Shown piece after piece: positions 10,039 to 62,400 of a stretch of 64,000 bases of DNA (positions are counted from its first letter, which is position 1; each line of letters begins with the position of its first letter). Source of the stretch: a virus; IMG/VR virus record IMGVR_UViG_3300009788_000095, positions 33,540 to 97,539 of that record, one strand, 5' to 3'. The notes below the pieces were generated by a model. The model saw nothing but the letters and a program-made list of their open reading frames with translations, had not been told where the DNA came from and searched no databases. Both the position numbers and the translations under genes were made by a program.

Positions 10039-10476
10039 ATGACTAATATATATTATAGATTCATTAATTGGAAGAATAGTTTATTTAAAGAAAAAATAAC
10101 ATGCTTACGAAGAATGCATGATCCCGATCATCGGGAGCATAAAAAAGAATTAGATTATTGGTATACACGAGGTATAAATAAAACTTGTAGTTTTTGTGGC
10201 TCCATGCACCCAGATGAGTTTTTTGACTTATGTAAAAAAGTAATTGAAAATAAAGGGCTTAATGGGTATGAAGTTTCAATGTCTGATAAGAAATATAAAA
10301 TTTATGTCCGCCAACCGGGTGTTTCTAATGCAGGAGATGGAGTTATCAAATTTTACGTTCAGCACATAAGACCAAAAGATAAAACAAAAGAATTTGAGAA
10401 TATAGTAAATGAAGCAATACGTATATCTTCAGATGTGTTTAATAAAAAAATGGAAGAAAGGAGGAAAACTAAATGA
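10039..10476 (+). CDS. Phage protein with CxxC motif (145 aa)
   Basis: ATG at 10039, AGGAGG upstream. After a basic N-terminal region come 'CSFCGSMHPDEFF' (about 50-62) and a beta-rich part ('YKIYVRQPG...KFYVQHI'). Short phage proteins with a CSFCGS...HPDEF start and a DKxYKxYV segment recur in other genomes as I recall, but without known role. A small hairpin (TCCCGAT/ATCGGGA, near 10122-10136) lies in its coding sequence. It overlaps the next gene by ATGA. Confidence 0.65.
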   Translation: MTNIYYRFINWKNSLFKEKITCLRRMHDPDHREHKKELDYWYTRGINKTCSFCGSMHPDEFFDLCKKVIENKGLNGYEVSMSDKKYKIYVRQPGVSNAGDGVIKFYVQHIRPKDKTKEFENIVNEAIRISSDVFNKKMEERRKTK

Positions 10477-11522
10477 TATGTGTACTAATCATACCGACAG
10501 GGGTAGGTCTTGCAATAGGTGGAAATGCCGGTGACGCTAATCCAGTTGCTAAACTAATTGGGGCTTGTTGTGATAAGTTGATTCTTCACCCTAATGTAGT
10601 AAATGCCAGCGATATAAACGAAATGCCAGAAAATGCAGTGTATGTAGAGGGATCCATGCTTGATCGGTTTCTTAGGCAAGAAATTGAATTGAAAGAAGTC
10701 CTACGGAATAAGGTATTAGTCGTTGCTAACCTGCCTCTCAGGAGCGATACTATAAATGCTGTAAGTGCAGCCAGAGCTACTATAGGTCTGGAAGCTAGTG
10801 TCTTGGAGTTAAATACACCATTAGAAATGATTGCCGAGATGCATGAAGACGGACATGCTGGCGGCATAGTAAGAGGCTGGAAAGAATTAATTGAACAAGT
10901 TGCACCGTTTGATTTTGATGCCTTGGCGGTACACACTCCGATAACTGTACCAAGAGAGACTGGATTAAATTATTATAAAAAAGGAGGCGTAAACCCGTGG
11001 GGCGGAGTTGAGGCAATAGCAAGCAAACTTATAGCTAATGAACTAAACAAACCGGTTGCTCATGCTCCTGTAGAAAGTTTTAATATAGATGACCAACAAG
11101 AAGTATATGATCTAGTAGTGGATCCTAGAATAGCTTCAGAGTCACTATCCAGTTGTTATTTACATTGTGTACTTAAAGGGCTGCATAAGGCACCACGTAT
11201 CAGTGATCATTGTCCGGGATATGGTAGACGTATAGCTGCTCAAGAAGTCGATTTTATGGTATCACCTTTTGGTCTGTGGGGTCCTCCTCACGAAGCTTGT
11301 GCAGCATTAGATATACCTATTATATTTGTCAATGAAAATAAACCGGCTAAAGGACTCGCAAAAGAGATCCCGGAAGGCAAATATCCTAGAATATTTCAAG
11401 TTGAAAATTATATAGAGGCAGCCGGTCTAATTATGGCTCATGAAGCTGGAATTGATCCTTTATCTGTCAGAAGACCATTAGCAAATACAATAATAATAAA
11501 GGAGGTACAGAATGAAAAGTAA
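10473..11522 (+). CDS. DUF3326-family protein (349 aa)
   Basis: Full length for the DUF3326 family, which I know mainly from cyanobacteria, plants and some bacteria, with no established reaction. Recognisable features: the N-terminal 'LIIPTGVGLAIGGNAGDANP' followed by 'PVAKLIGACCDKLILHPNVVNA', a Gly/Asp-rich opening typical of the family. Later come 'GVNPWGGVEAIASKLI', 'AHAPVES', 'SSCYLHCVLKGLHKAPRI' and 'SPFGLWGPPHEACA', all well preserved. GGAGG binding site eight bases upstream. The gene is intact and its context (DHODH-like gene 900 bp before) suggests a metabolic role in infected cells, but this is inference. Next gene starts inside its last codons. Confidence 0.8.
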   Translation: MICVLIIPTGVGLAIGGNAGDANPVAKLIGACCDKLILHPNVVNASDINEMPENAVYVEGSMLDRFLRQEIELKEVLRNKVLVVANLPLRSDTINAVSAARATIGLEASVLELNTPLEMIAEMHEDGHAGGIVRGWKELIEQVAPFDFDALAVHTPITVPRETGLNYYKKGGVNPWGGVEAIASKLIANELNKPVAHAPVESFNIDDQQEVYDLVVDPRIASESLSSCYLHCVLKGLHKAPRISDHCPGYGRRIAAQEVDFMVSPFGLWGPPHEACAALDIPIIFVNENKPAKGLAKEIPEGKYPRIFQVENYIEAAGLIMAHEAGIDPLSVRRPLANTIIIKEVQNEK

Positions 11523-27231: not shown

Positions 27232-27618
27232 ATGGTATTAGTTAGTGTAGGTCTTTTTTTATTAGCGGTATCCCTGGTTTTTTCGATAGTACTTTTTTGT
27301 ATGTCCTTGTCTAAGATAAAGATTGGAGGTACTATAAATGTAAACATACCTCAGAACGGATATCATAAATTTGCAGGTGTTGATCCTGCTCAAGGTAAAG
27401 ATAGGTCTGAAATGACAATGGTCGAACATCCCGGACCAGATGGTAGTACGATTAGTTATCCTACAGCTGTTCCGGATATGAGTATACTTGATAGTGCTAA
27501 AGTTGAAACTAATATGGATTCGGAAACATTAATTATTAAAGGTAATACCAAGGGTAGCGATATTAAAAGTGCTGCAGCAGAACTTAAAAAAACTAAAAGT
27601 AGCAAGGGGTTAAAATGA
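27232..27618 (+). CDS. Membrane-anchored protein (128 aa)
   Basis: ATG at 27232. One N-terminal membrane helix (residues 1-26, VLVSVGLFLLAVSLVFSIV), then a soluble 100-residue tail containing 'KFAGVDPAQGKDRSEMTMVE' and a Lys/Ser-rich end. The ATGA overlap with the next gene suggests that it works with the actin-like protein, perhaps as a membrane anchor. That link is inferred from position only. Confidence 0.55.
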   Translation: MVLVSVGLFLLAVSLVFSIVLFCMSLSKIKIGGTINVNIPQNGYHKFAGVDPAQGKDRSEMTMVEHPGPDGSTISYPTAVPDMSILDSAKVETNMDSETLIIKGNTKGSDIKSAAAELKKTKSSKGLK

Positions 27619-28628
27619 AGGGTTTAGATATTGGGACAGCATTTATTGTTTGTATGGAGCAAGGTACTGAGGGGAACCAGGTAGTTCGTAGTGAGAGAGA
27701 TGCTTTTTTTGAAGTACCTCCAGGTGAGTTTACAAAAAATATGCTTAACCAGTCTGGGGTTAATTATGTTAAGATGGACGACAAACTATATGTTATTGGT
27801 GATAAAGCTATGGAATTTGCAGAGGTGTTTGGTAGTGAAGCGCGTAGGCCACTTGCTCGTGGCTATATCAGCCCACGAGAAAAAGAAGCGCTTCCTATTT
27901 TAAATCAGATTATTAAGGCTGTAGCCGGTAAAATAAATGAAAAAAATGAGAAATTGATATTTTCGGTACCTGCGGATACTATTGATGATTTTCAGAGACA
28001 GAATGCCTTGGTATACCACAGAGAGAGTATAGCTACACTTATAAGACATATCGGGTTTGAGCCTATTGCACTTAATGAAGGTTTAGCGGTTATTTATTCT
28101 GAACTAAAAGATTATCAATTTAGCGGCCTAAGTTTAAGCTATGGAGCCGGAATGGTAAATTTTTGTGCGTCTTGGCTATCAGTGCCTATTCCTGAGCTTA
28201 CTTTTGCAATAGGTAGGGGCGGTGACTGGGTAGATGAAAGTGCTGCCCGAGCTTTAGATGAGAGTATTGCAGTAGTTTGCGGGATGAAAGAATCTCCAAA
28301 TGAATTTAATCTTAATGATAATTATGAATCTGGTATTCCTCAGGCATTAAGTATTTATTATAAAGAACTTATCAGGTATACACTAATGACCTTAGAACGT
28401 GCATTTTATAAAATAAAAAGGCGGTTTCCTAAACCGATACCTATTGTTATAAGTGGAGGAACTACATCTCCTCCTGGATTTTTGAACCTATTTACCGAGA
28501 TGACAAGAAAATGTATCTTTTCTAATTTTAAAGGAGATAGGATAGAGATAGGGGATATAATCCAGGCCGGTAATCCATTGTACTCTGTAGCTCAAGGTTG
28601 TATGATTAAGGGTGTGATAGATGGGTAA
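27615..28628 (+). CDS. Actin-like ATPase of the ParM/MreB fold (337 aa)
   Basis: The actin/Hsp70 ATPase fold is shown by phosphate-1 'GLDIGTAF' (3-10), connector 'NEGLAVIYSE' (154-163), phosphate-2 'LSYGAGMVNF' (174-183), a 'GRGGDWVDESAA' segment (200-211) typical of filament-forming relatives, and the adenosine motif 'IVISGGTTS' (277-285). Length suits ParM/Alp-type actins rather than Hsp70. The usual partner is a DNA-binding adaptor. The small gene 28621-28908 overlaps its stop and is a candidate. Phage-encoded actins have been linked to plasmid-like segregation or replisome positioning; here it lies upstream of terminase genes. Confidence 0.8.
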   Translation: MKGLDIGTAFIVCMEQGTEGNQVVRSERDAFFEVPPGEFTKNMLNQSGVNYVKMDDKLYVIGDKAMEFAEVFGSEARRPLARGYISPREKEALPILNQIIKAVAGKINEKNEKLIFSVPADTIDDFQRQNALVYHRESIATLIRHIGFEPIALNEGLAVIYSELKDYQFSGLSLSYGAGMVNFCASWLSVPIPELTFAIGRGGDWVDESAARALDESIAVVCGMKESPNEFNLNDNYESGIPQALSIYYKELIRYTLMTLERAFYKIKRRFPKPIPIVISGGTTSPPGFLNLFTEMTRKCIFSNFKGDRIEIGDIIQAGNPLYSVAQGCMIKGVIDG

Positions 28629-28908
28629 TAACGAAAACGAAATTGGTAGTTTAGGTGAATCTCAGATAACTAAGCAGGAAGAAAAAGTTATTATACCACA
28701 AAGGTTAGTAGGTAAGGATGTTGTTAACTGCCCTATAGCAGCTGCTGCAGAGTCAGTTGTACTTGTAGATTTTTGTAAAAATATATGTTCTCATTTTGTT
28801 AAATTTATTGAAGATGAGAAATATGGTAATAGGGTTGAGTGTAAATACCCTAGATTTATAAAAGTTATTAATGTTTACGGAAAAGAAAAGTCAACTACCT
28901 TTACCTAA
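28621..28908 (+). CDS. Unknown protein paired with the actin-like gene (95 aa)
   Basis: ATG at 28621 overlaps the previous gene by eight bases. Distinct features: 'NCPIAAAAESVVLVDFCKNIC' around residues 40-60 with three Cys, and a final basic beta-like segment. Its last five codons (STTFT) read into the hairpin that begins the IscB-linked region, so the true C-terminus may have been replaced by insertion of that element. Its close linkage to the actin-like gene suggests an adaptor role. Confidence 0.55.
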   Translation: MGNNENEIGSLGESQITKQEEKVIIPQRLVGKDVVNCPIAAAAESVVLVDFCKNICSHFVKFIEDEKYGNRVECKYPRFIKVINVYGKEKSTTFT

Positions 28909-28972
28909 AGGGTAGGGGCTTGAGTAGTGATGCTCAACGCAAGGGTTGATTAGGGAGCTAAAAGGAAATTTT
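28889..28972 (+). ncRNA. Candidate omega-RNA / HEARO-type structured region
   Basis: Three nested hairpins lie between the previous gene and the IscB start: CTACCTTTA/TAAAGGGTAG (about 28894-28914), TTGAG/CTCAA (about 28920-28937) and CAAC/GTTG (about 28935-28948), ending at TTAGGGAGCTAAAAGG. IscB nucleases use an RNA encoded just upstream of the gene, with the guide at its 5' end, which would fall in the end of the preceding gene. The exact ends and guide cannot be set by eye, and the RNA may extend into the N-terminal coding region of iscB. Confidence 0.45.
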
Positions 28973-30319
28973 ATGCAGAAGTTATTAGTAAAGTTAAAGA
29001 ACACACCTACGGATGCTTCACAAGTCTGTAGCTCTGTAAATTCTGTATTAAACAAAGAGGGCACTCTTAGTGTGCAGAATAAAGTACTGGCTAATAACAA
29101 TCCCGAAGTGAATCGAGTCTCTACAAACAAGACGCTCGTTAAAAGTAAAGTGTTTGTGCTTAACAAACAAGGTTTACCATTAATGCCCTGTAGTTATGCT
29201 AAGTCTAAAAGAATGGTTAAAAAGGGAGGAGCGAAAGTAGTTAAAAGATATCCCTTTACAATCCAATTAACATTTGATTGTGAAAACAAAACCCAAGATA
29301 TTACTTTAGGTATTGATACGGGTTTTGGTAACATTGGGTTTAGTGCTGTTTCAGAAAAGGAAGAATTAATTTCAGGAACTTTAAAACTCGATGGAAGAAC
29401 TAAAGAAAGATTAGATGAAAGAAGAATGTATCGAAGATGTAGAAGAAACAAATTGTGGTACAGGAAAGCAAGATTTAGTAATCGAAAGAAAAAAGAAGGA
29501 TGGTTACCTCCTTCAACCCAAAGACGGTATGATACACATTTGAATTTAATTAACGGGTTGAAAAAGATACTGCCCATCACTTTAATTACTGTTGAAGTAG
29601 CAAAGTTTGATATCCAGAAGATAGAGAATCCAGATATCCAAGGAAAAGAATACCAGCAAGGTAATTTGTACGAATATCAAAATACAAGAAGTTACTTAAT
29701 GGCTAGAGAAAAGGGTAAGTGCCAGTTATGTAGTAAAGATTTTAAAGGTCAACCAAGTCACCTACACCACTGTAAACAACGAAATGAAGCGGGTAGTAAT
29801 AGACCTGAAAACTTAGCCTTACTTCATAAAGTATGTCACACGAAGCTACACAGAAAAGGATTAAAACTATTTAAACCAAAAGAATATAAGGCCAATATAT
29901 TTATGTCTATTATAAACAAAAGGTTCTGGAAAGATGTTTCTAATTTAAAAGTTACTTACGGTAATACAACATTTGTTGATAGAAATAATTTAGAGTTAGA
30001 AAAATCTCATGTTAACGACGCTTTTGTTATTGCTAACGGTTCTAGTCAGAGAAGGTGTAAAGCGTTTAGTATACTTCAAAAGCGTAGAGCGAATCGAGCG
30101 TTGCAGTTAAATAGAAAAGGATTTAAACTTTCTATTCGTAAACAGAGATATAACTTACAGCCGCATGACTTAGTTAAAGTTAATAACCTTATTTGCACTG
30201 TTATTGGAACTCATTGCAAAGGTACTAGAGTTATGATTAATAAATTGGATAGAAAAGTTAGTGAGTCAATTAAAAATATAGAATGGAGTTTTCATTTTGG
30301 AAGTTTTACATATAATTAA
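28973..30319 (+). CDS. iscB: IscB RNA-guided nuclease (448 aa)
   Basis: IscB proteins, the ancestors of Cas9, cut DNA guided by an omega RNA. Features in order: an unusual 58-residue N-terminal extension; PLMP domain ('VFVLNKQGLPLMPCSYAKSK', 60-79); RuvC-I 'LGIDTGFG' with Asp 115; Arg-rich bridge helix (146-172); RuvC-II 'ITVEVAKFD' with Glu 208; HNH domain with zinc pair CQLC (250-253), 'HLHHCKQRN' (His 265, 266), Asn 280 and 'KVCHTKLH'; RuvC-III 'SHVNDAFVIAN' with Asp 349; and a basic C-terminal domain. All catalytic residues are kept, so activity is expected. ATG 28973 has AAAAGGA upstream; an earlier TTG at 28946 is less likely. No transposase accompanies it. Confidence 0.88.
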   Translation: MQKLLVKLKNTPTDASQVCSSVNSVLNKEGTLSVQNKVLANNNPEVNRVSTNKTLVKSKVFVLNKQGLPLMPCSYAKSKRMVKKGGAKVVKRYPFTIQLTFDCENKTQDITLGIDTGFGNIGFSAVSEKEELISGTLKLDGRTKERLDERRMYRRCRRNKLWYRKARFSNRKKKEGWLPPSTQRRYDTHLNLINGLKKILPITLITVEVAKFDIQKIENPDIQGKEYQQGNLYEYQNTRSYLMAREKGKCQLCSKDFKGQPSHLHHCKQRNEAGSNRPENLALLHKVCHTKLHRKGLKLFKPKEYKANIFMSIINKRFWKDVSNLKVTYGNTTFVDRNNLELEKSHVNDAFVIANGSSQRRCKAFSILQKRRANRALQLNRKGFKLSIRKQRYNLQPHDLVKVNNLICTVIGTHCKGTRVMINKLDRKVSESIKNIEWSFHFGSFTYN

Positions 30320-30327
30320 AAAGGAGA

Positions 30328-30717
30328 GTGACAGTTTCTCTGTTGCTTAAAGGCGACAGTTTCCTTGTCGAAAAGGTTATGATCGATCAAAACTTAGAAA
30401 GTATCACTTCTACGGTAGCTACTTTTATTGATCATTGGTGGGCATGGCTAGTACCTGTTGTAATAATGTTTATATTAAGGAGATACATATCTAATTTATG
30501 GTATCGTATCGTAATGAAATTAAGCGAGGCTCCTTATGCGAGTATAGGTAATGTGATTCAATTTCAGGAGAACGGTACAAAATGGAAAATAGTAGGATTT
30601 ACGCGACACAGCGTTTATCTTAAGAACGCAGAGAAAGAGAAGAATGGTAACCTTGCTTTAATGCGCGTTCCTATAGACAAGTACTATAATAGTATATTTA
30701 TTTATAAGAAGGTATAG
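30328..30717 (+). CDS. Small membrane protein resembling an MscS fragment (129 aa)
   Basis: GTG at 30328 gives 129 residues; ATG at 30379 (112 residues) is also possible. One membrane helix (about 40-58, WAWLVPVVIMFILRRYI) is followed by 'LSEAPYASIGNVIQFQENGTKWKIVGFTRHSVYLKNAEKE...LMRVPIDKYYNSI'. This recalls the membrane exit and beta domain of MscS-type channels (ExPY..GD.I...G..G.V..I..R.T.L...d.....IPN). Three-transmembrane channel core is missing, so it may be an oligomeric relative with another function. Starts nine bases after iscB. Confidence 0.5.
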   Translation: MTVSLLLKGDSFLVEKVMIDQNLESITSTVATFIDHWWAWLVPVVIMFILRRYISNLWYRIVMKLSEAPYASIGNVIQFQENGTKWKIVGFTRHSVYLKNAEKEKNGNLALMRVPIDKYYNSIFIYKKV

Positions 30718-47479: not shown

Positions 47480-50400
47480 ATGCCTGAAGAATTAATACGT
47501 ATTGATTTAACCGAGATGTCTGAGCTTAGGGACCTAGTTCAATCTTTACGTGGTATAAAAGATGTCTTTTTAACTTTCTCAAAAGCCGTGAGTACTCCGT
47601 CCGGAGGTAAAGCTACAGTAGGGGAAATATCAATTAAAAACCTCATTAAAAAGTTTGACCAAGAGTTTAGTGCTTTCACTAAAAAGTTTGGAGAAGGTGC
47701 TAAGGAGTTTAAGGTTAAAGGTATTGATGAGGCTCGCCGTAAAATTCAAGGTTTTTCCGGATCTATCGGTAAAATGGTCCAGGCCGTAGGAGAAATAGAT
47801 AAATCTATAAAATCTATAACAGCAGCAAGTCTTAAACTTAAAAAATCACCGGAACTTAAAAAAGCTAGAGATACCCTCGAAAAAGAATTAAATAATATTT
47901 TTACAAAGTATATGTCTTTAAATGTTGATGATGTTATTAGAACAGCTGAAAAAACAGGGAAAAAATTAAATGATTATTTTAAAACTATAAATGATAGATT
48001 GGCTGAAACTGGTAAGGGGATAGAAAAACAGATTCAAGATTTACCAAAACCTAAAGCTAAGGTTACTAAAGGTAGTCAGGGAGTTGTAGGAAAGGCTAAA
48101 GAAGGTATTAAGAAAATAGAAGAAAAAGAACAGACTTATATTTCAGAGCTGGACGAAAGAGTAACAGGTACCCTAGATGTTTTACATAAGAGATCTATAG
48201 ATCAAATAGATGCTTTGATTAAAGAAGTAAGAGGCACTACTCCTGCGGGGGCTACTGCGAGATTTGCTGAGGCAGGGAGAACGGGTGTTTTAAAAACAAT
48301 CAGCGCTATTAAGAAAGGTATTCAGATATCTCAGAAAGGGTTAACTAAGTTAGTAGATAAGGCTCTAAATTTACAGAAATTAAATGAAGTGATAGGTAGG
48401 AGTACAAAACAAGTTCAAAGACTTGAAAACGAGATTAAAAATATAGAGAGAACTATACAACCTGAGGAAGCTGAGGGTATTATAGCAAGACGGGAACGAT
48501 GGATAACAGCATTAAATAACCAGATTAAAAAGTTTACGGAAGCACGCACTACAGTCTGGAATGAAATAAGTAAGAAGTTGTCAAGTGCTGCTATAGGCGA
48601 TGTCAAAGAATTTGCAAAACTGTTAGAGACAATAAATGATATACGTTTCTACAGTAGACTTACACGTAGATTAGAAAGAAGGGGGATTTCTCCAGAATCT
48701 TTAAATCGTGTTAGAACAACATTCGGGGCATTTGAGTTTGAGGGGAAATTTTATGAGAATATTAATTTAATAACAAAGGGTCTTATTGCTACTGCTAAGA
48801 CCAGTGTAGAAGAAGTAGGTTTTGCTATCAGTGAGCAGATAGGCCAGTATGGAAAAACTGTAACAAAATTACGTTTGGGCTTTACGAGAGGAAGAGCCCC
48901 TAGAGAAATGTTTAAAGTTACAGAAGCTATTTCTGGTATTACACGAGGTTTAGGCGGATTACCTGGTGCTAAGTTTGGTAAGGTATCGGCAGGGGCAAAA
49001 GAGGATGTTGTTGGAAAATTATTAAACAGTATAGCTATGCAGGTAGCTCAACGAGCAAAGTCTGAGGTTAGTGTAAGCGGAATGGCAGTGAGCGGTTTAG
49101 ATGTAGAGAAAGCGGCTGATGAAATAGCTACAGCTATTATTACTCCTTTTTCAGGTTATTTGTTAGCTAAAAGGCCGGAGATAGGAAAAGCGGTTATACC
49201 CTCAGGAAGACCAGATTTAATGAAGCTAGATGATCTTGCCAGGTATATGGTTAGAGAAGCAATGCCTACGGCTATGAGAAAGAAGTTTCAGGTTACCATA
49301 AGTAAATTTTTTGAGCAAGCAGGTGATATAGGTAGAATAAAAACTGAATTTATGAGGGTTATGGGTATGGTAGGACCTGCTGAAACAGCAGGTGCAAGTT
49401 ATGAAGGTTATATACGGGAGATGGAAGCACAGGCTAAACTATTTATCGATCAACAAGAGTATACACGAGAGTTTGCGCCGACTATACAAGCAGCTATAGA
49501 TGCTTATATATCCGGAGGAAGTCAGGTATTTGAAAGAGTTGTAAATTTATTAAAGATACGAACACAGAAGTTTTTAGTTGAAATAATAAAGCTTATTCAG
49601 AATAGGGTTCAGTTACCTATTGCTGAAGCTATGGCTAAGTATAGAAAAGAAGTACAGCAGAGATTTGTTGAGATGCTGGTAGCGGGATTTAGGAAAGAAC
49701 AGGGAAAAGTACAAAAGTTAGCATCCGGTAGGGCGATGCAGTCTGGACTAATAAGCGGCGCATCGGCTACTGAAGAACAGTGGACAGCACCTTCTGCATT
49801 TTCGATTACAACTCCAGGACAGACACCAAAGATAGAAAGAGAGCTTAGGAGTATGATATTCAACCTGATGTCTTATTCCCTTAGGGGTAAGTCGCTAAAG
49901 GGCACTAGGTTTATCTCTGATTTTGTTCCAAAGATTTTAAAAGAAACGGAAGCTGCAGAAGTAGGTATGCCTGGTAAGCAATTAATAACAACACAGGCCC
50001 TAATAGAGAGAATAAAGACATCAAAAGGGGAGGATGCAGAACAAGCAAAAAGACTTATTGAACAGGTTACGGTGTTACCGGAAGAGGAGTTTAAAAGATT
50101 TAAATTTATAGCAGAGACCCTTAAGTTATACATTACAAAAAAAGGTGAGTTTACTAAAAGAGGGCAGGAGATGATGAAGCGTGTTATGGGAAATGCTAGA
50201 AGACTAACCAGAGGTGGCGGTATTTCTACACAATATCAATCTTTCTTGAAAGTGATGTTTGAGGAGGTTTTAAATATAGAGCGAGAAAGTGTTTTTGCTC
50301 AGATGATAGATCCTGCACAGATGGAGGCATTTTTATCTCATGAAAAGGTAGCGTCTCAAAAATTAGTAGCTAATATAGTTAGTAGGATAGAAAGGTTTCC

Positions 50401-53400
50401 GAAGGGTAAAATGAAAACAGGCCTTTTGACTTATGCTGATATGAAAGAGAGACAGAGAAAAATTGCGGAAGAAAAGTTAAAGCGGGTAGGTGATATTATA
50501 AAGAAATATACGGCTATTGGATTTTCACCAACTCTCATTAGGAGACTAATTGCTACGACTGAAAAAGAACAGGAAGTTTTTGATAGAGAAGTTGTGGCGT
50601 TAGAGAATGTAATTAAAAGAGGCGGTGCTGTAGCGTATGAGTATTTTCCTACGCAGCAGATTGTAGAAAAACATAGGCAGGAAGCATTAGCTATCAGGGG
50701 GCTTGAAGAGGCTGAGAATGTAAGTAATAAAAGACTACAGAGAGCTTTTCAGAAAATCAGTAAAGTATTTCAGGAAGGTGCAGGTTTTAAAGAGATAAGA
50801 CAAATGATATCAGATGTTTATAAAAGAGGAGATAGAGAAACTGTATCTCGCTACGATAAGGCTATAACCGCACTATCCTCTATACATAAAGAAAACATAC
50901 AGAATGTTGGTAAAATACTTATTCCTGCAATAGTGCAGTTTTTTGTAGGCGATATGGAGAACTTGGAGCAAGTATTAAGAACATTAGCTTTAATATCGGG
51001 AGGAGCTGCTACCGCAGAAAGGTACGGGTATATAAGGTCTTTAGTTGGTGAATTTTTAGGAATTTCACGAAAAGAGTACGGGCGTTTAGATAAATCTTTA
51101 AAATCAGGGAATAAGCAGGCAGTAAAGGCAGTTCGGGATAGATTAGTGACTTTATTTACTCCGAAGATAATGGATCTTGGAAAAAGTTTGGAGGATTTTT
51201 ATATACAGATGAGTGCAGACTTAGCTAATCTTGTTACTACAAACTTAGTTAGTTGGTTTACTGCTCAGAAAGAAGGGTTGGGTAAAACATTCGGTGCAAT
51301 AGCGATGCGTGTAAGACAGCTAGGCAGGATGCGTGTTAAAGGTGAAACTATAGGTATGATAGAGCCGTCAGGATTCTTACCAGGAACTACCGGAGAAATA
51401 CCTATTGAAACTATAAGACAAGAACAAAGATTATTAGGAGCAAGAGGAAGAAAACCGACAGGGGAGGTACCTGTTTCTTATGCACCGGCGGTTAAAGGGC
51501 TAGATGATATTCTTAGGGAGTTAACTGAAGAATTTAAACTAACTAAAGAGGCTGTGTCAGTACTTCGTGCCTTTATGGAAACTAAATTTTCAGGAAGAGA
51601 GGTTGTGGCTATACGTGGTAGAGCAGGAGTAACTACTCCAGGAAGAGGCGGGCCTTCAGCTTTTGGTGCTTTTGCAGGTAAAGATATTGAATATGGTTTA
51701 CAAAATATAGTAAAAGATTACATGAAACGGCTAGGCTATACTGTTGAGGGTAAAGCAGCAACAACTGGAACTAAAATACATGATATCTTAGAAGGTGTTT
51801 TTTTAGAGTACTCAAAGCGTATCGGAACTCAGATGGTAACTGAACAACCAGTAACAACTGTAGGTACTAGAGAAGGCGCTGCTGCTAAAACATCATTATT
51901 GGGTTTTGGTAGAATTGATATACTTGGTATATTTAAAGGTTACGGTGAGATATTTAAGGCATTAGGGGCTATGCCTGCTTTAGTAGATATTAAGACAGTA
52001 ACTCGTCTTGAGGCTTTTGATGCAGAGGGATTTAAGACTCAGATTAGTGCGTATGTAGAAATGTTTAAAGTTTTGGTAAAGATGAATCCTGATAAATATC
52101 CTGAACTACAAGATGCTTTAAAACTAATGGGCGGTAGGGAAGTTACTGCTGTACGAAACTCCATTGTAAATATTCAAAGTATTGTTAAGGATATTACGCA
52201 GTTACAAGCTGCGGCTCTTGTTATAGATAGGGAGGCATTTGAGGCAGCTATTAAAAAAGCCGGTTTTAAGAGTATTGATCAACTAAGGTTTTTGGTATTA
52301 GCCGGTAAAATAACTAACGAGCAGGTGAAACGACTTATAACGATTGTTAATCAGGTAGGTAAGGTTGAGGTTTTTGGTTTAAAAGATTTGCCTGATATTG
52401 AGAGATTGATGATTCCTGCTTATAGAGCAATAGTGGCTTTTGAACAAGTTAATAAAGTGTTAGGTAATATTTCCGGAGAAATAACAAAGAGGTTTGTAGA
52501 ATATAAAGGTAGACGTGTAGAGCATATAGACGAGGCTCTTCTTGCTAAAAATTTAGGGGAGCTAGGGTTGCCGTTTATTAAAGATGCGGAAAAGCTAAAA
52601 AGGGTCGCAAAAGAACAAAAGGTATCTATGGGAGAAGTAAAGGATGCTATAAAAAGAGCAACTGTAACGGTAACTAGCCAAGTTCCGGAACGTGAATTTA
52701 AGGATTTTTATGCACAGTTAAAAGAGAGGTTACTGACACAATTAAAAACTTTAACTGGTTTTTCTAATATAAAACAGTATTTAGGTGAATATATCGGTAG
52801 GCAGCAGATAGGTGGTAGGGCAGGTGTTGCTGCATTGCCAGCACCAGGAAGGGTAGGGGTAGAAAAAGAGAGAGTGCAAGTATCAGCTGAAACAGCAAAA
52901 ATGACGGGTGAAGAAGCAAAGGCTTACGGAAACATTATAGGAAGTGTTGAAACTTTAACCGGTAAGTTAAAAGAAAAGACCGGCGCTCTTGAAGCAGAGA
53001 TGGCTATTTTAAAGGAAGAAGCTACTATTTTTGTTTCAATTACACAGACAGCGGAAAGTTTGGTTAAGTACCTGAGAGGTACAGAGAAATTATCTTCTGT
53101 AATTAAATCAGCTTCACAGGTTCTTAGCTTGTTTGGACTGAGTGAGAAAGAGGTAGGAAAAGTAGTTAAAAACTTAGGAAAAACTGTCGGAAAGATGGAA
53201 GAGTTAAAATCAGCAACATCTAAGGTAAAAGATACTGTGGAAGGTACAGCTCAGGGATTTGATAGAGTAAATAAAAGTGCAACTGATTCGTCCAAAACTA
53301 TAGATGATATGCTGGGCGGTATGTTTAATTTAGGTAGCGGGACTGCGAGTGTTGAAGAAAAGATTAAGTCAATGACAAGTGAAGCAGGCAGGTACGCTAC

Positions 53401-56400
53401 TATGATGAACAGTGCTGTTACTTTTTCTAAAAATGAATCTGCAAATAGAGAGCAGATTAAAGCTAAGCTTAGTGATGCTTTATCACATATTGAAAAATAC
53501 GAACAGTTAGCGAATAGGCTTTCAGAACATTCTAAAAATAATGTAGATGCAGCTAAAGCGGAATTTACAGCACGTCAGAGAATTGCACAGATATACGAGC
53601 GTGCTTCTGAGTTTGGATTAAGGACGGAATCTGAACTAGCAGAGAAGATAGATCTTAGAAATAAAAAACAACGAGATTTATCAAGACAAGCTAATGAGTA
53701 CTTTACACAGTTAGGTAGGATCAGAACTGCATCTGCAGACGCTAACATACCCCTACATGAAAGACTTGAGAGTCTTAGAGAGGCTATACGTGCCTTAAAT
53801 CAGTATGCAGACGTAGTTAAATCGCTTTCTCAGGTTGAGGGAGAGGGCTTAGCAACAGCATCTAGACGACAACAGTTTGCAATGCGTAGATCTCAGATAG
53901 GGGAAGCTTTAGGGGGATTACAAGCAGAGTTTAAGAGAGGGGCTGATCCTGCAGGGGAATTAACGAGACATATAGGGAAGCAGATATCGCAGTTTAATGA
54001 AGAAATGTTATTATCTGGAAGAGCTTATGCTCAATTAACTAAAGAATCAGGAGGGGCTATAAGAGAAAACTTAAATGTGATTCGTAAAGTAACTGATCAA
54101 CAAGGTAAGCAGCTACTTATGGTTGAAGGTATAGCAACAGCTCAGGGTAAAGTAACTACACAGGTAAAAGAGACAGCATCTGTGTATGCTGGAACTGTAG
54201 CTAATCAGATGAAAAATATTATGGCTAGACTGGCGAAGTGGGGGAGTGGTGCTTTTTTATATTTTGGTGTTATGCGTGGTGCTAGGGATGCTGTTCGTGC
54301 AATAACAGAAATGGAAAGCGCTATTACTTCGTTAAGGCAAGTTATGAATCAGTCTAATACTGATTTTATGGCTATGTCAGAGCAAGCTTACGCTCTAGCT
54401 GTGTCCTACGCAACACCTATTAAAGATTTAATGAAAACTATGTTAGAGTTTGCGCGGCAGGGCCTTAACCAGGAAGAGGTAATAGAGGCTTCACGGGTAG
54501 CTACTCTAGCAGCTAATGTAACAGTCTTAAATGCAACGCTGGCTATGGACACACTTACAGCTGCTACACGTCAGTATAATATATCTGCAATGGATTCTAT
54601 AAAAGTTCTTGATGCCTGGAATTTAGTAGCTAATAGGAATGCTGTTACTGCAAAGGATTTGGGTGGGGCGATGAAACAGGCAGGTAGTATAGCTAAATTA
54701 ATGGGGCTTGGTTTTGAGGAACTCACAGGTATCATGGCTGCATTACAGGAGACTACCAGAAGAGGTGGACCTACAATCGGACGTGCAATTAGGTTTATGT
54801 TAGTTCATTTAAGAACAGATGAAACAGAGAAAGCTTTAACTGATTTAGGTATTTCTATAAGAAAGACAGCCGGAGAATATAGAACAGCTTCATCTGTATT
54901 TAAGGAAGTAGCTGAGAGGTGGAGAGAATTAACAAGTGCTCAAAAGTACCAAGTTTCTTATGCTATAGGGCACGTAAGGTTTGGTGCATTTGTAGCTGCA
55001 ATGTTTGAGAATTGGGCTAAGGTTACTAAAGCTACAACAGAAGCTACTTACGCTCATGGATCTGCAATGGCAGAAAATGAAATAGCTATGCAGGCGTTTA
55101 AGAAACAAGTAACAGGTTTACGTAATGAATGGGAGGCTTTTATTTATTCTTTTGGTAGAACAGGTATCTTAGGTATACTACGTGGATTTCTTTCAATAGG
55201 TAAGGGTATCTTAGGTGTATTTGATAAACTGCCAGGGGTTATAAAGACTACAATTTCTGTCTTGGGTACATCTGCTGTTTTATTTATGGGACTTAGTCGA
55301 TTTTTACGATGGTATTTTAGTATTGATTTATCAGATGTTATTCGCAGGTGGGGATTAAGAGCGGCAGGAAAAGAGGCGGCAAAAACTATAGGTTTTTTAA
55401 AGAATGTTTCTTCAGTAGCTATTGGTAAAAATATATCTGAGACAGAAACACTAGCAATGGCACAAAACACAGTAACAGGATCTGTGCAGGGAACAAATGT
55501 TTTATATACTACGAGTCTTGGCCTCCTTAACTCTATGACTTTAGCTACAAGGGAGTTAGCGGTTGCTCAGGGTTTAGTTACTGGGGGCACGACAAAAGTA
55601 GCTATGCAGACGTTACCCTCTACCCTTGTGATGCAAAGAGGGAGACTTGCACCTACTTCAGCAAGAACGATAAAGGAGAGCGTAGCAGTAGCGGGTACGG
55701 GTGCAGCAGTCAAAAGATCATTATTTCAGAAGAGTACTTTTAGAGAAACATTTCGTGCAGCTAGGGTATCCGGGAAAGCTACAGGAAATAGATGGGGTAA
55801 TGCTTTTATGGCTGCAACCTGGTTAAGGGTTAAGGGTTTAGGTAAGGGATCTTTTTGGAAGGGTTTAGGTTTAGCTTTAACTAAGGTAGGAGGTACTTTA
55901 GCAGGATTTTTAACTAGTCCTCTTGGGATTGTAGCGGCAGCTATAGCAGGTACTACAGCAGCCCTATGGGGATTTAGGAAAGTAACAGATAACACATCTA
56001 AAATTATAATTGAAAAAAACAAAAAGTTAATTAACGAACTTCAGCAGTCTTTAAATGAGGCTAAAATAGCTATTGTTTCTTATACAACGGCTTTAGAGAA
56101 TATCGCTACGGGTGCTAGGGTTGATTTAAGTGCTATTGAAAGGGAGAAGAAATTAAGATCAGATATAGCTTCCCGGTTTCCTGGGTTAGTGAAAGGTTAT
56201 ACAGATTACGGGGATGCTATTCTTGAGTCTTCAAACAGGGTTGGTGTACTTAAAAAAAGAATGGAAGAGTTAGCCACAGTAAAAGCTGTAGAACTAATAG
56301 GTATACAGTTAGAGGAAGTTAGTGTTATATTAAGAGATCTATCAGACCCGAGAGTAGGCAGAAATATTTTAACTTATTTACCGGCCAGTCTGGGTTTGTT

Positions 56401-59400
56401 GGATAGTACTATAGACAAACTAAGAAAAAATATTAAAGAATATAATAATCTACGAGAAGCTTACAATGAGGCATTTAAAAGAGGTTATGATGTTACTACT
56501 ATTAGAAAAAATATGGGTGAGATTGCTGAGGAGATTAGAGAGGGAACCAAGGTAGTAAATACTTCTTTTATTCAGGCAGAAAATAGAATGAGAAGTATAG
56601 CAAAGATGGGCGGAACTGCTGCAGTTGAGGCAATTGGGAGGGCATTACAAACAAACTCATCAAATCTGGAAATTTATATAACTAGTATAGTTCAAAGTTT
56701 AGGTACGGAAGATGTTTTAAAAGGATTCAGAGCATTTTTTGTTAAAACATTTGGCCCGGACTTAGGTACGATTATAAAAGATTCTGTTAGGAATATACCT
56801 TTACCAGCTTTAAAAGAGTCGGCGGAGGCTATATCAAAAGCTATTTCCGATTCTTTATTAACAAATATAGACGTTAAGGGGTCTACCCGAAAGGCAGTTA
56901 GAAAAATAGTTAAAGATTTAGAAGATGCGATTAGGGGTGAAGATTATCAGGAAGCTTTGTTATCGGCTATGGAAGGTATATATGAAATCAGGGGAAAACT
57001 AAGCGATAATGCGGTACAGAAATTAACTAGTAAGATGGGCGAGTTTGCTATAGTTTTCGCAAAAAAGATAGAAGGCGATGCGAAAGAACATAGAAAAATG
57101 TTTATTAAGACTACCGAGGGGTATGCTATAATAGATGAAGAAGCTATAGCAAACATATTTGGAGGTAAAGATATAGATTTAGAGCTTATTAAAAAGAAAA
57201 AAGAATTTATAATGAAATACAAAAAGTCTGGCGATGTGATTGATATGATTGAAGAAATGCAGCGAGAGAAAGGTAAGTGGGAAGGAGATACATACGTTAT
57301 TAAAGTAGGTATTAAACCAGATGAAGTATACTTTAATAAACTTAAAGTGGCGATGGACGCTGTTAAGGGTTATTCTGCATACCTTAAAGTGATGGATCAG
57401 TATTTAACTGGAATTAGTGCAACAGAAAAAAACAGAGTAAGTATGATGAAGGATGCTTATTCTATAGGTACGAAGTCAGCAAAAGAATACGCTAATATAC
57501 TTGATGCTTTGGAAATTAAAATCAAAAAGAACTTAAGTAGGTTTGGTGGTTTAATGGGTGCTGGTCCGGAATTTAAAAGGGAGATGCTTGATATTACAAG
57601 ATTAAGAGCAGAAGCAGAATTAACTGTTAATAAGTATAATCAGTGGCGTTCCTTAAAGAATAGAATGTTAGCAGATCCTGCAGCATTTCAAAAGGATACA
57701 CACGCAGTAAGAACCTTTAAGAATTTAATAGGAGATATCCAGGCTAGTTATAAAACATTACCGAGAGAAGCGCAGGAAATGTACAGGGGTGTTTTTAAAG
57801 ATATAGATAAAGTTTTAATCGATGAAGACCAGGTAGAGAAGAATAAAGAAAAGATTTTAGGTGCAATTAGGGATATAGCTGATAAGGCTAAATATAAAGG
57901 TGTATTAACTTTTGAAACAATTGATACACGTGTTTTTGATAAAGCCATAGATGAAATATATAAAAAGTTTAGGGACACTTCAGCCCTTACATCAAAAGAC
58001 GTAGAAAGTATAATAAATAAAATCCCTATAGATACAGGGGCTGTAATTAATGCTGAAATAGATAATATGAGAAAAAAAATAAATACGATGAAGAAAGAGC
58101 AGTTTCCCGGGCTATTCGGTACTATTTCAGAAAGTGACATAAATTATTTTAAACAGCTAAATACGCTATATGGAGAATTAGAGAAAAAAAGAAGAACTGC
58201 TAAGGTTTTAGGTAAGGCTTTACCATTTATTCCTAAAAAAACTGATTTAGATGCAGTTAGTAAATCTCTAGATAGTTTAATAAAAGAACATGGAGCAAGA
58301 CTTGCATCAGGAGTTTCAGTAGATATTAGTAAAAGTGTTTTACCGCGTTTGAAAAAAGAGTTAGAAGCAGTGCAACTGATGAAAATGGAATTTAAATTAG
58401 ATGAAGCACAGGCCGCTAAGCAGGCAGTAGGTGCGGCTGAATTATTTAAATCCGCTTTTACAAGAGAATTACATGAGAGGGTAGGAGAAGAAGCAGGAGG
58501 AAAACTTGCTTTAGGTACAGTAAAGGGGCTTCAGCGTGGTTTAACGGTTTTAGGAGGTACTAATTTTTATAGACTATTAGCAGGTACAATGAAGATAGAT
58601 AAAGTAGCTAATCAGTTAATAAGATCAGGTCAAAAAGCATTTGAGAAAGCTAGTAGAGGACGAGGTGGTACTGATACGATGACTGCTATACTAGGTTTAA
58701 CTCAACAGAATATAGGCGAAGCATTAAGGACAGCTAATTTAGGAGGAGTAGCTATAAACGCAGCTAGTCAGATATGGGATGAATATTTAAGCAGGGCCAG
58801 GGACGGAAGTACAGAGAGTATTGCAGTTTTTACAGAAACAATAAAAGCTTTTTCTAAGGCCGCAGGGAATACAACGGGAGAAATGTTAGACAACATAACA
58901 AAACAAATGGAAGAGGGCATGAGGCCTGATGTAGCTTTTATGGATATGGTTAAAAGCCTTGGTTTAGCCCCTGAGGATTTAAGACTTATACAACAACAAT
59001 CAACAAAAATGCTTTCGACTATTACAGCTATACAGAAGGGTATGGGAGATGCAGCGAGTGACTACTCTAAGTCTTTAACAGAGTCAGGTAAAAAGTCTAG
59101 ACTGGAAATAGTTAGTTTGTTAAGTGAGTCTTTAAATATAGCTAAATATTATGAAAAAAGAAGAGACGAGGCTATAAAGGACATGAAGGAGTATGTAACT
59201 ACTCTAGTAAGCTATAGTAAAGAATTGACTTCTGGAGTAGGTGTGTCTTTTGCTGAATTTTCAGAAAAGATGGGTGGGCATCTTGGTGGTATACGTAAGA
59301 TGTTAAATATATTTTCAAAATCTACTGAAGCAGAAGTAAGAGGGTGGGCTAAAGCTTTAAAGGAGATTTTAGGTAGAAAGTTTGTAGAGGCTTTTACAGG

Positions 59401-62400
59401 TTTTAATATCCAGGCGATAAAGCAGTCTATTAATGCAATAAGGGATGCCTTAGCTACTGAAGAATTTGAAGAAACCGGTTACGCTGGCATGACAGCATTG
59501 GCGAGTCAAATAAAGAAATTAGGTATAGCTTTAGCTAAAACAGCAATAAAGTTCCCAGAAGTTAAAACGTGGGGTAAAATGGTTAAGGAGGCTTTTGATA
59601 AAAAGACAGTGGCTGAAGCGGAAGCAATGGGAAAAGCATTAATAAAGTTAGGAAATGAAACAGATGAGTTACGTAAGAGGCGGGATTATTTAAAAAAAGG
59701 ACCACCTGCAGGGGCAAAGGTTATATTTTTTGATCCTGCTAGTGTTAACGAATTAGATGAACAAATAAAACAGAATGAGATACGCTACACTAGGTTAAAA
59801 ACTCAACTAGTAGCAGGATCTACAGCAATGAAAAGTTATTTTGAGGATACGTCGAAAGAATTTAATGAGTTATTTAGGGTACTTGGTTATACAGATAAAC
59901 AGATTAAAGTATCTGATAAAAATTTACAGGCTTTAGGCTTAACAGGTATACGGGCAGCTTATGCTGTTATTCAGCAGCAGATTAGTTGGATTAAAATGAA
60001 TAAGTCTTTATCTGATTTTGTAACAGTTGCTGACCTGTACACAGATATAGGTTTGGTAAATAGAATAGGTGAATTGACTCCTGTTATTTCTGCTACAGAA
60101 GAAGTGCTTACCGCATTAAAAAAGGAGTATATAAGTAACACTGAAAAGTTAAGGGAATACACGGAACAAACAGAAGATTTTATTAAAGTGCAAGAGAGAC
60201 AAAAAATAATAGTGGAAACGGTAAAAGATGTAGAGAACTGGAGGGAAAGATTAGTAGGGTTTGAAAGTATGAGATCTTCGTATTCAGATTTAAATAAAAG
60301 TTTAAATTTATTAGATGCTCAAACAAAGGTATATCAGTCTAGTTTAGATTCTGTAAGTAAAACTGCTGATTATTTTAAAACAACAATTGATAAACTGATT
60401 GAATCTTCATTACGTTCCGGAGAGTGGGGTTGGGATAAAGTTCCGCCACTTATAAAAAGCTCTATAAGTCAGCTAGAGTCTTACTACTCAGAACTGTTAG
60501 CTTTACAGAGACAGCAGGATGTTATTTATAACCAGGTAGATAGACTAGGCGATGCATGGGCGGATGCACTGCATGCCCCTGATGAAGAACAAACACTTTT
60601 GAAGTCTATAACAGATAGTTTTAAACAATTAAGAAGAGATGCATCAAGAAATTTTATACAGCCTGTTCTTGATGACTGGAAGAACTTATTTGCTGGAACT
60701 GTACCTATCAAAGATATACAAGTAGATGCAAGTGCGGAAATAAAGTTTATAGTAGCAGAGATTAAAAGATTAGAAGAAAATATTAGAAGCGAGAAAGGTG
60801 TATTCGAGGAAGTTTTTTTAGGTGATCTAAAAAAGGCATTAGGTATTTTAAATGAGAACGACACTATACAAGCACTTAATAGCATGAGTAAGGTTATTAA
60901 CAATATATTACTGGGTAAGGGGGGTGTGGTAAGTGCACCTGTACCCCTTAAAAAGGCAAGTGGGGTTGTACTAACTGCTGCTCAGGGAGTAGTGGATGGA
61001 AGGTCTGGAGGTCAGTTAGGTCACGCTGTAGCTAAGGAAGGTAGTGTTTTAGCTGAACTTCATCCAGGAGAAATAGTTGTACCAGCTCGGTTAGCAGGAG
61101 GGGTACCCTCTTACATAACTAATCAATTACCTGTTTATGATGGATTTTCTTCAGGGATACGTATGGCTGAGGGTGGTGTATTAACCGAAGAAGAAAATCT
61201 TAAAAAAGCAAAACAGGTTGCTGATAGTTTATTTAATAAAGGTCTTTTTCTGGAAGCTGTATCTGCGTATAGAGGTATACTAAAGGTAAGGCCTAATGAT
61301 CGGGATGTTAATTTAAACCTTAATAGATTACTAAGTCAAAATGCCTTTAGTGATCCTTCTATAAAATTAGAAAGAGAAAAAGATATAGCTAAACACCCCG
61401 AGATAGAAGAAAAAATAAAGGAGGCTAATCTTCTCTACAGATCACAGGAGTATAAGAAGGCGCTTGATATTTTTACAGGCATAAGGTTTAAATACAAAGA
61501 TATTGAACAAGATAGTAAGTGGCTTACGTATGGTTTTATAGAGAGGATAAAGACATTTATTGAATATAATAAACCCGGGGATGTAGCAGGTCTGATTAAG
61601 GAAAAGCCGGAATTAGGTAAGGCTCTTGATCCGCGGGATATGAATTTAGAGGATGTAGAGTTGTTGGCACGAAGTTCTTCAAGTAAAAAAGAATTGAAAT
61701 CTATACTGAGTGAGATACCCCTGGATAACCATAATGTTCGTTTAGGTATGGAATCTTTGATAAAGGAGAAATCTTATTTTTATAAATTATTTGAAAGGCT
61801 AAAAAAATGGGGTGCAGTTAGGTCTGAAGTAAGTTTCGCAAAAGAAATGATGAAGTCACTTAATAAAGAAGCTGTAGTTGATTACTTAGGGATAGAAAAA
61901 TTTAAGAGATATTTTCCTAAGATACCAATTACTAGTCAACAATTTGCTTCAGGTATTAGAATGGTTGAAGGTGGACAGTTACCCTTACCCAGAGCAGCAG
62001 TAAGAGGAAGATTTACACAGGAGGAAAAAGAGAAACAAGCTGAGAATCGTTGGAAAGTAATGGCAAAGATAGCTTCTGCAGCTTGGAAGTTGGGCGGAAA
62101 AGGTGTTACAGGGTTTATGGGTTTAATAAGTTCTGCTCTTAAGAAAGAGATAACTCTTCCTGAAATGAATAATCAGTTAACTAAAGATCAGTTAGAGATG
62201 AGGGACGCGATAATGCGTGGTTTCGGAGGTAAGTATAAAACAGCAGATACGAAAACTGACCTTAATTTTTGGAAAGATGTATATAGGGGTTTAGGGATTA
62301 TGGGTAAAGGTCTTTCTACGGGATGGAAGGGATTTATTAAATTTATAAAAGATCATATGAGTTTAAAAGAAATATATTTAGGTGCTAGGGCACAGCAAGG

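What the first reader, a model, noticed from the sequence alone, without database searches (positions are those of the whole stretch)
28889..28972. Hairpin chain before iscB may be a very compact omega RNA
Three hairpins are packed in about 60 bases between the upstream gene and the iscB start, and the upstream gene's last codons read into the first one. Known omega RNAs are longer, so either this is a minimal form or the RNA continues into the unusual N-terminal coding extension of iscB (28973-29140). In the second case the same DNA would serve as both protein code and guide RNA.
Basis: partly seen in the sequence, partly recalled or inferred. Interest (0 to 1): 0.7.

Follow-up and report, generated by a model that had tools for sequence, protein, structure and literature searches.

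The report
Guide RNA nested inside nuclease gene
In a large virus, the guide RNA of an IscB nuclease is full-sized, not miniature, and two thirds of it lies inside the readable start of the nuclease gene, so the same DNA appears to make both the RNA and the front end of the protein.

Summary
The hairpins are real, but they are only the 5' third of an ordinary-length omega RNA. Rfam HEARO (RF02033) matches 28890-29118 over all 211 positions (116.7 bits, cut-off 83). The RNA runs through the "N-terminal extension" and stops 31 nt before the conserved IscB core (GTG at 29150).

In 24 related loci (23 viral, one archaeal) the iscB frame is open through the RNA: 0 stops in 57 codons upstream of the core, against 106 and 110 in the other two frames and 54 in 13 canonical relatives. 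Start codon: ATG in 21, TTG in 2. Linker length varies only by multiples of 3. Seven have no start codon near the core. The RNA helices covary strongly. Silent sites in the extension are far more conserved than in the core, and no third-position excess is seen. So the RNA fixes the sequence and selection keeps the frame open; the peptide itself looks unconstrained.

An empty site in an archaeal relative places the left end at HEARO base 1, with ATGA on the right. In the window the element is 28890-30378, inserted into an ATGA stop/start overlap; this explains the upstream gene reading into hairpin 1. Translation of the extension is inferred, not shown.

The parts
28890..30378 (+). Whole IscB/omega RNA insertion element (1489 bp); right end inferred
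   Evidence: Left end: first HEARO base, the homology boundary in multi-copy archaeal relatives and in an empty site. Right end: placed before ATGA, as in the archaeal copies; no empty site for this virus itself
28874..28889 (+). Presumed guide segment (16 nt assumed), host-virus flank directly 5' of the scaffold
   Evidence: Position by analogy with OMEGA systems and the empty site in G105; length not determined; no second target in the record
28890..29118 (+). omega RNA scaffold (Rfam HEARO, RF02033)
   Evidence: 116.7 bits vs cut-off 83, model 1-211 complete; covariation in relatives
28889..28951 (+).
   Evidence: fold; helices 1-3 of the consensus
28960..28975 (+). AAAAGGA ribosome-site-like sequence and ATG start codon (28973-28975) inside the omega RNA
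   Evidence: sequence; ATG in 21 and TTG in 2 of 23 open relatives with an identifiable start
28973..29149 (+). N-terminal coding extension of iscB, 59 codons, overlapping the 3' two thirds of the omega RNA
   Evidence: frame kept open in 24 loci; 3n length changes; predicted disordered, residues 1-55 pLDDT about 30-37
29119..29149 (+). Linker between omega RNA and IscB core
   Evidence: no stops in 264 linker codons of 24 loci, 16.7 expected
29150..30319 (+). IscB core (PLMP, RuvC, HNH), 389 codons plus stop
   Evidence: NF040563 guided_IscB; PF14239 RRXRR and PF01844 HNH
28621..28908 (+). Upstream gene; its last codons (28890-28908) come from the inserted element
   Evidence: frame runs into HEARO; joined flanks would give ...GAA AAA TGA, stop overlapping the next ATG
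30379..30382 (+). ATGA: presumed target-adjacent motif and start codon of the downstream gene
   Evidence: same motif after archaeal right ends and in the empty site
30379..30717 (+). Downstream gene, 112 aa, no family match

Best explanation
This is an IscB (OMEGA) element in a virus. Its omega RNA is full-length and its iscB gene starts inside that RNA. The transcript that carries the guide and the scaffold is also the iscB mRNA: the ATG at 28973 lies in the middle of the scaffold, and a ribosome starting there reads through the rest of the scaffold, then a short linker, then the IscB core. The amino acids of the extension are dictated by the RNA; selection on the protein side only keeps the frame open. 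On one RNA molecule, translation and folding into the scaffold should exclude each other, so each transcript is either message or guide RNA, and free IscB binding the scaffold would cover its own start codon (inferred). The element sits in an ATGA stop/start overlap between two genes; its guide copies the left flank, so an uninserted allele, with that flank followed by ATGA, would be its natural target (shown for the site structure in an archaeal relative, inferred for cleavage and for this virus).
For: HEARO full-length hit in the window and in most relatives scanned. Frame 0 has 0 stops over 57 codons in 24 open loci, other frames 106 and 110; 13 canonical loci have 54, 44 and 55. Linker: 264 codons, 0 stops, 16.7 expected; with 13 non-redundant linkers 9.3 expected, P about 1e-4. 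Distances from a conserved RNA motif to the core (49, 52, 55, 64) are all 1 mod 3 in open loci, mixed in canonical ones. Stops resume just upstream of the ATG: 63 in 30 codons of 23 loci, all 23 affected. Seven open loci have no start codon near the core, and canonical loci have their own start there, mostly with a strong ribosome site. Covariation: 96.1% of cells paired, 35 pairs changed on both sides, 0 of 500 shuffles as high, including helices lying wholly in the coding extension. pS in the RNA-overlapping extension 0.35 vs 0.75 in the core. Mobile multi-copy relatives with the same open extension in Thermoplasmatota and an empty site.
Against: No expression data. No third-position excess in the extension (145/147/119 changes vs 326/250/618 in the core), so nothing shows that the peptide is useful. 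Ribosome-site strength at the upstream ATG is only moderate and in several loci weak. Fourteen open loci still have a GTG at the first core codon, so internal starts remain possible there. The open loci are not one clean clade on the core tree. Within the RNA, sequence conservation itself lowers the chance of new stops, so the linker test carries most of the weight.
Confidence: 0.8

Rival explanations
1. The omega RNA is a separate non-coding RNA and IscB starts at GTG 29150; the open extension is a by-product of RNA conservation.
For: No amino-acid-level selection in the extension; GTG present at the core start in the window and in several relatives; family models begin at the core.
Against: The linker is not RNA-conserved (pS 0.67) yet has no stops in 24 loci and changes length only by threes; seven relatives have no start codon at the core.
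Confidence: 0.15
2. A minimal omega RNA of about 84 nt ends before the ATG.
For: The 5' junction folds on its own.
Against: The HEARO model matches end to end across 229 nt, with covarying helices inside the extension.
Confidence: 0.02
3. The extension is a real protein domain with its own function, such as binding the omega RNA.
For: Shared peptide pattern across relatives, e.g. TPTDASQV and LNKEETLSV.
Against: The shared pattern lies over conserved RNA motifs; no codon-position bias; pN/pS 0.92; predicted disordered; no solved relative.
Confidence: 0.08
4. A decayed transposon remnant with no present function in the virus.
For: No Y1 transposase in the 97.5-kb record or the 180-kb copy.
Against: iscB intact, catalytic-type residues invariant in the family alignment, full RNA kept, frame intact. 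Lack of transposase is common for IscB elements (general knowledge).
Confidence: 0.15

Closest known systems
IscB with HEARO/omega RNA (OMEGA systems)
   Same: Same protein family, same RNA family, RNA 5' of the gene, guide at the RNA 5' end by position, target-adjacent motif on the 3' side
   Different: In canonical relatives iscB starts after the RNA with its own ribosome site; here the start codon lies within the RNA and the scaffold is in frame with iscB
IsrB omega RNA (PMC9581776)
   Same: The paper reports that the terminal RNA hairpin contains the Shine-Dalgarno sequence of isrB and suggests a role in regulating expression; its motif preference NTGA fits ATGA
   Different: There the RNA reaches only the ribosome site; here about 145 nt of scaffold lie in the coding frame
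TnpB omega RNA / sotRNA (PMC10278001, PMC12558985)
   Same: Guide RNA and nuclease mRNA share sequence; TnpB processes its own mRNA
   Different: TnpB RNA overlaps the 3' end of the gene; here the overlap is at the 5' end and covers the start codon
HEARO in Staphylococcus phages (PMC13346280)
   Same: HEARO reported in phage genomes
   Different: No nesting in the coding frame was seen in the passages read

Membership tests
IscB RNA-guided nuclease | Match to the IscB family model | tested here: met
   NF040563 292 bits vs cut-off 175
IscB RNA-guided nuclease | RuvC and HNH domains with catalytic residues | tested here: met
   PF14239 and PF01844; D115, E208, H265/H266, H346, D349 invariant in 17 relatives; residue roles by analogy
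IscB RNA-guided nuclease | RNA-guided DNA cleavage | not testable with these tools
   needs purified complex
HEARO / omega RNA (RF02033) | Covariance-model match above the curated cut-off | tested here: met
   116.7 vs 83 bits, complete
HEARO / omega RNA (RF02033) | Structure supported by covariation in this group | tested here: met
ISC element (IS200/IS605-like) | Precise insertion, guide flank at left end, motif at right end | tested here: inconclusive
   Met for an archaeal relative, where an empty site was found; for the window itself only inferred
ISC element (IS200/IS605-like) | Y1 transposase in the element | tested here: not met
   none in either virus record; archaeal genomes G135, G001, G184 carry Y1 genes
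Protein-coding N-terminal extension | Frame kept open beyond chance | tested here: met
Protein-coding N-terminal extension | Codon-position bias or low pN/pS | tested here: not met

The most novel reading that the evidence does not exclude
A lineage of IscB elements in viruses and Thermoplasmatota archaea reads its own guide-RNA scaffold as the start of the nuclease protein, so that each transcript is either message or guide, and the nuclease limits its own synthesis by binding the RNA around its start codon.
Probability: 0.35. Interest if true: 0.78.

Novelty: new variant of a known kind. Interest (0 to 1): 0.62.

Why it matters
It would be a clear case of a structured guide RNA and a protein reading frame sharing the same bases over about 145 nt, with the RNA dictating the peptide. 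It gives a direct way to study how omega RNA and nuclease amounts are balanced, and it warns that IscB gene starts in this lineage need care. The ATGA site also suggests why these elements land in operon stop/start overlaps.

Tried and rejected
Minimal omega RNA: rejected. Chance open frame: rejected by stop counts and frame-keeping length changes. Functional extra domain: not supported. Empty site of this virus: not found; the upstream gene, downstream gene and terminase gave only the near-identical 180-kb record. Second target of the presumed guide in the record: none. The extension (with the core start) in plasmid and phage records: none at 1e-5. Foundational papers (Weinberg 2009, Altae-Tran 2021) are not in the library, so an earlier remark on HEARO overlapping the ORF cannot be excluded. 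Searches for a description of omega RNA inside the iscB frame found none.

Full report
What is there. The window is part of a virus record of 97,539 bases; a near-identical 180,316-base record exists. Rfam HEARO matches 28890-29118 on the + strand, model 1-211 complete, 116.7 bits against a cut-off of 83. The whole RNA folds at -63.8 kcal/mol, z -3.46, 0 of 200 shuffles as good. The IscB core starts at 29150 (GTG; VFVLNKQGLPLMPC) and matches NF040563, PF14239 and PF01844. So the RNA has normal length, and the unusual coding extension 28973-29149 overlaps its 3' two thirds.

Is the extension coding? I collected relatives by protein search, by a HEARO DNA pattern and by a profile of extension plus core start. 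In one search they fell into two groups: 24 loci (23 viral, one archaeal; the window included) with the iscB frame open at least 45 codons above the core, and 13 canonical loci. Over 57 codons upstream of the core, stops by frame were 0/106/110 in the open group and 54/44/55 in the canonical group. The linker between RNA and core is not constrained as RNA, yet has 0 stops in 264 codons where composition predicts 16.7; with 13 non-redundant linkers 9.3 are expected, P about 1e-4. The distance from a conserved RNA motif to the core is 49, 52, 55 or 64 in the 19 open loci where I read it cleanly, always 1 mod 3, and of mixed phase in canonical loci. The open frame begins at a start codon inside the RNA: ATG in 21 and TTG in 2 of 23 loci, with stops resuming a median of 6 codons further upstream. 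Seven open loci have no start codon within codons -4 to +2 of the core, while all 13 canonical loci have one, mostly with a strong ribosome site. At the upstream start the ribosome-site strength is moderate and variable.

RNA or protein constraint? On an alignment of 11 open relatives the RNA structure has 96.1% of cells paired, 35 of 59 pairs with changes on both sides, and no shuffle of 500 as high; helices 6-9 lie in the coding extension. The alignment was made without the structure, but the structure was derived from it; the slid controls fall to 34-42% paired. Counts of changes at codon positions 1/2/3 are 145/147/119 in the RNA-overlapping extension, 65/74/80 in the linker and 326/250/618 in the first 80 core codons. 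pS and pN are 0.35 and 0.32 in the overlapping part, 0.67 and 0.52 in the linker, 0.75 and 0.33 in the core. The frame is kept open but the peptide shows no selection. AlphaFold2 gives residues 1-55 pLDDT about 30-37 and much of the core 80-90, on a shallow alignment of 17.

The element and its site. Thermoplasmatota genomes hold many copies with the same extension: 8 of 389 genomes, 11 matches in G135, some internally deleted yet still in frame. Their homology starts at the first HEARO base and ends before ATGA. The site of one G135 copy is empty in G105: the same flank is followed directly by ATGATAAAAGA, where G135 has the element followed by ATGATAAAAGA. By this rule the window element is 28890-30378, followed by ATGA at 30379, the start of the next gene. 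Joined in thought, the upstream gene would end ...GAA AAA TGA, overlapping that ATG. At least four archaeal copies (L123, L124, L125, L126) also lie in such a phase. The presumed guide is the flank directly 5' of 28890. No other match exists in the record. Neither virus record has a Y1 transposase; the archaeal genomes do.

How it probably works. Shown by comparison: RNA family, covariation, open frame, element ends in an archaeal relative. Inferred: translation of the extension, guide function, cleavage of the empty site, and mutual exclusion of translation and RNA folding with feedback on synthesis.

Comparison. The IsrB paper notes the Shine-Dalgarno sequence of isrB in the last omega RNA hairpin and suggests a regulatory role (PMC9581776). 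TnpB omega RNAs lie at the 3' end of their gene, IscB ones at the 5' end (PMC12558985). I found no description of an omega RNA inside the 5' coding frame of iscB, but the two founding papers are not held. I file this as a new variant of a known kind.

Limits. The open loci are not one clean clade on the core tree: 17 group together with support 0.90, while L013, L039 and L051 fall elsewhere. Loci share ancestry, so the non-redundant linker count is the safer figure. Most loci are uncultivated virus contigs. Canonical loci were mainly found through one HEARO pattern. The host of this virus is unknown.

Noticed in passing
window 47480-64000 (+, runs off the window): A single open reading frame of more than 5,500 codons; residues 2305-2492 match PhageMin_Tail (PF10145, 2.9e-27), so probably a giant tape measure protein.
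   Followed up: partly
window 27615-28628: Gene with a strong match to Volactin (PF25216, 237 bits), an actin-like family, just upstream of the element.
   Followed up: no
window 10473-11522: Full-length match to DUF3326 (PF11805, 237 bits), unusual in a virus as far as I know.
   Followed up: no
L124, L125, L126 (G135) and L102: Internally deleted elements that keep the omega RNA and extension and appear to fuse in frame to the C-terminal part of IscB.
   Followed up: partly
L092, L097, L099, L103: Loci matching the extension where the open frame ends shortly after it, with no IscB core in frame: possible solo omega RNAs; HEARO confirmed for L092 and L099.
   Followed up: no
L098/L102 record G461 (137,151 bases): Four HEARO matches in one virus record, three above the cut-off.
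   Followed up: no
L051, L063: A sub-lineage with a different RNA sequence around the start, TTG start with AAAGGAG before it, still in the same frame.
   Followed up: partly
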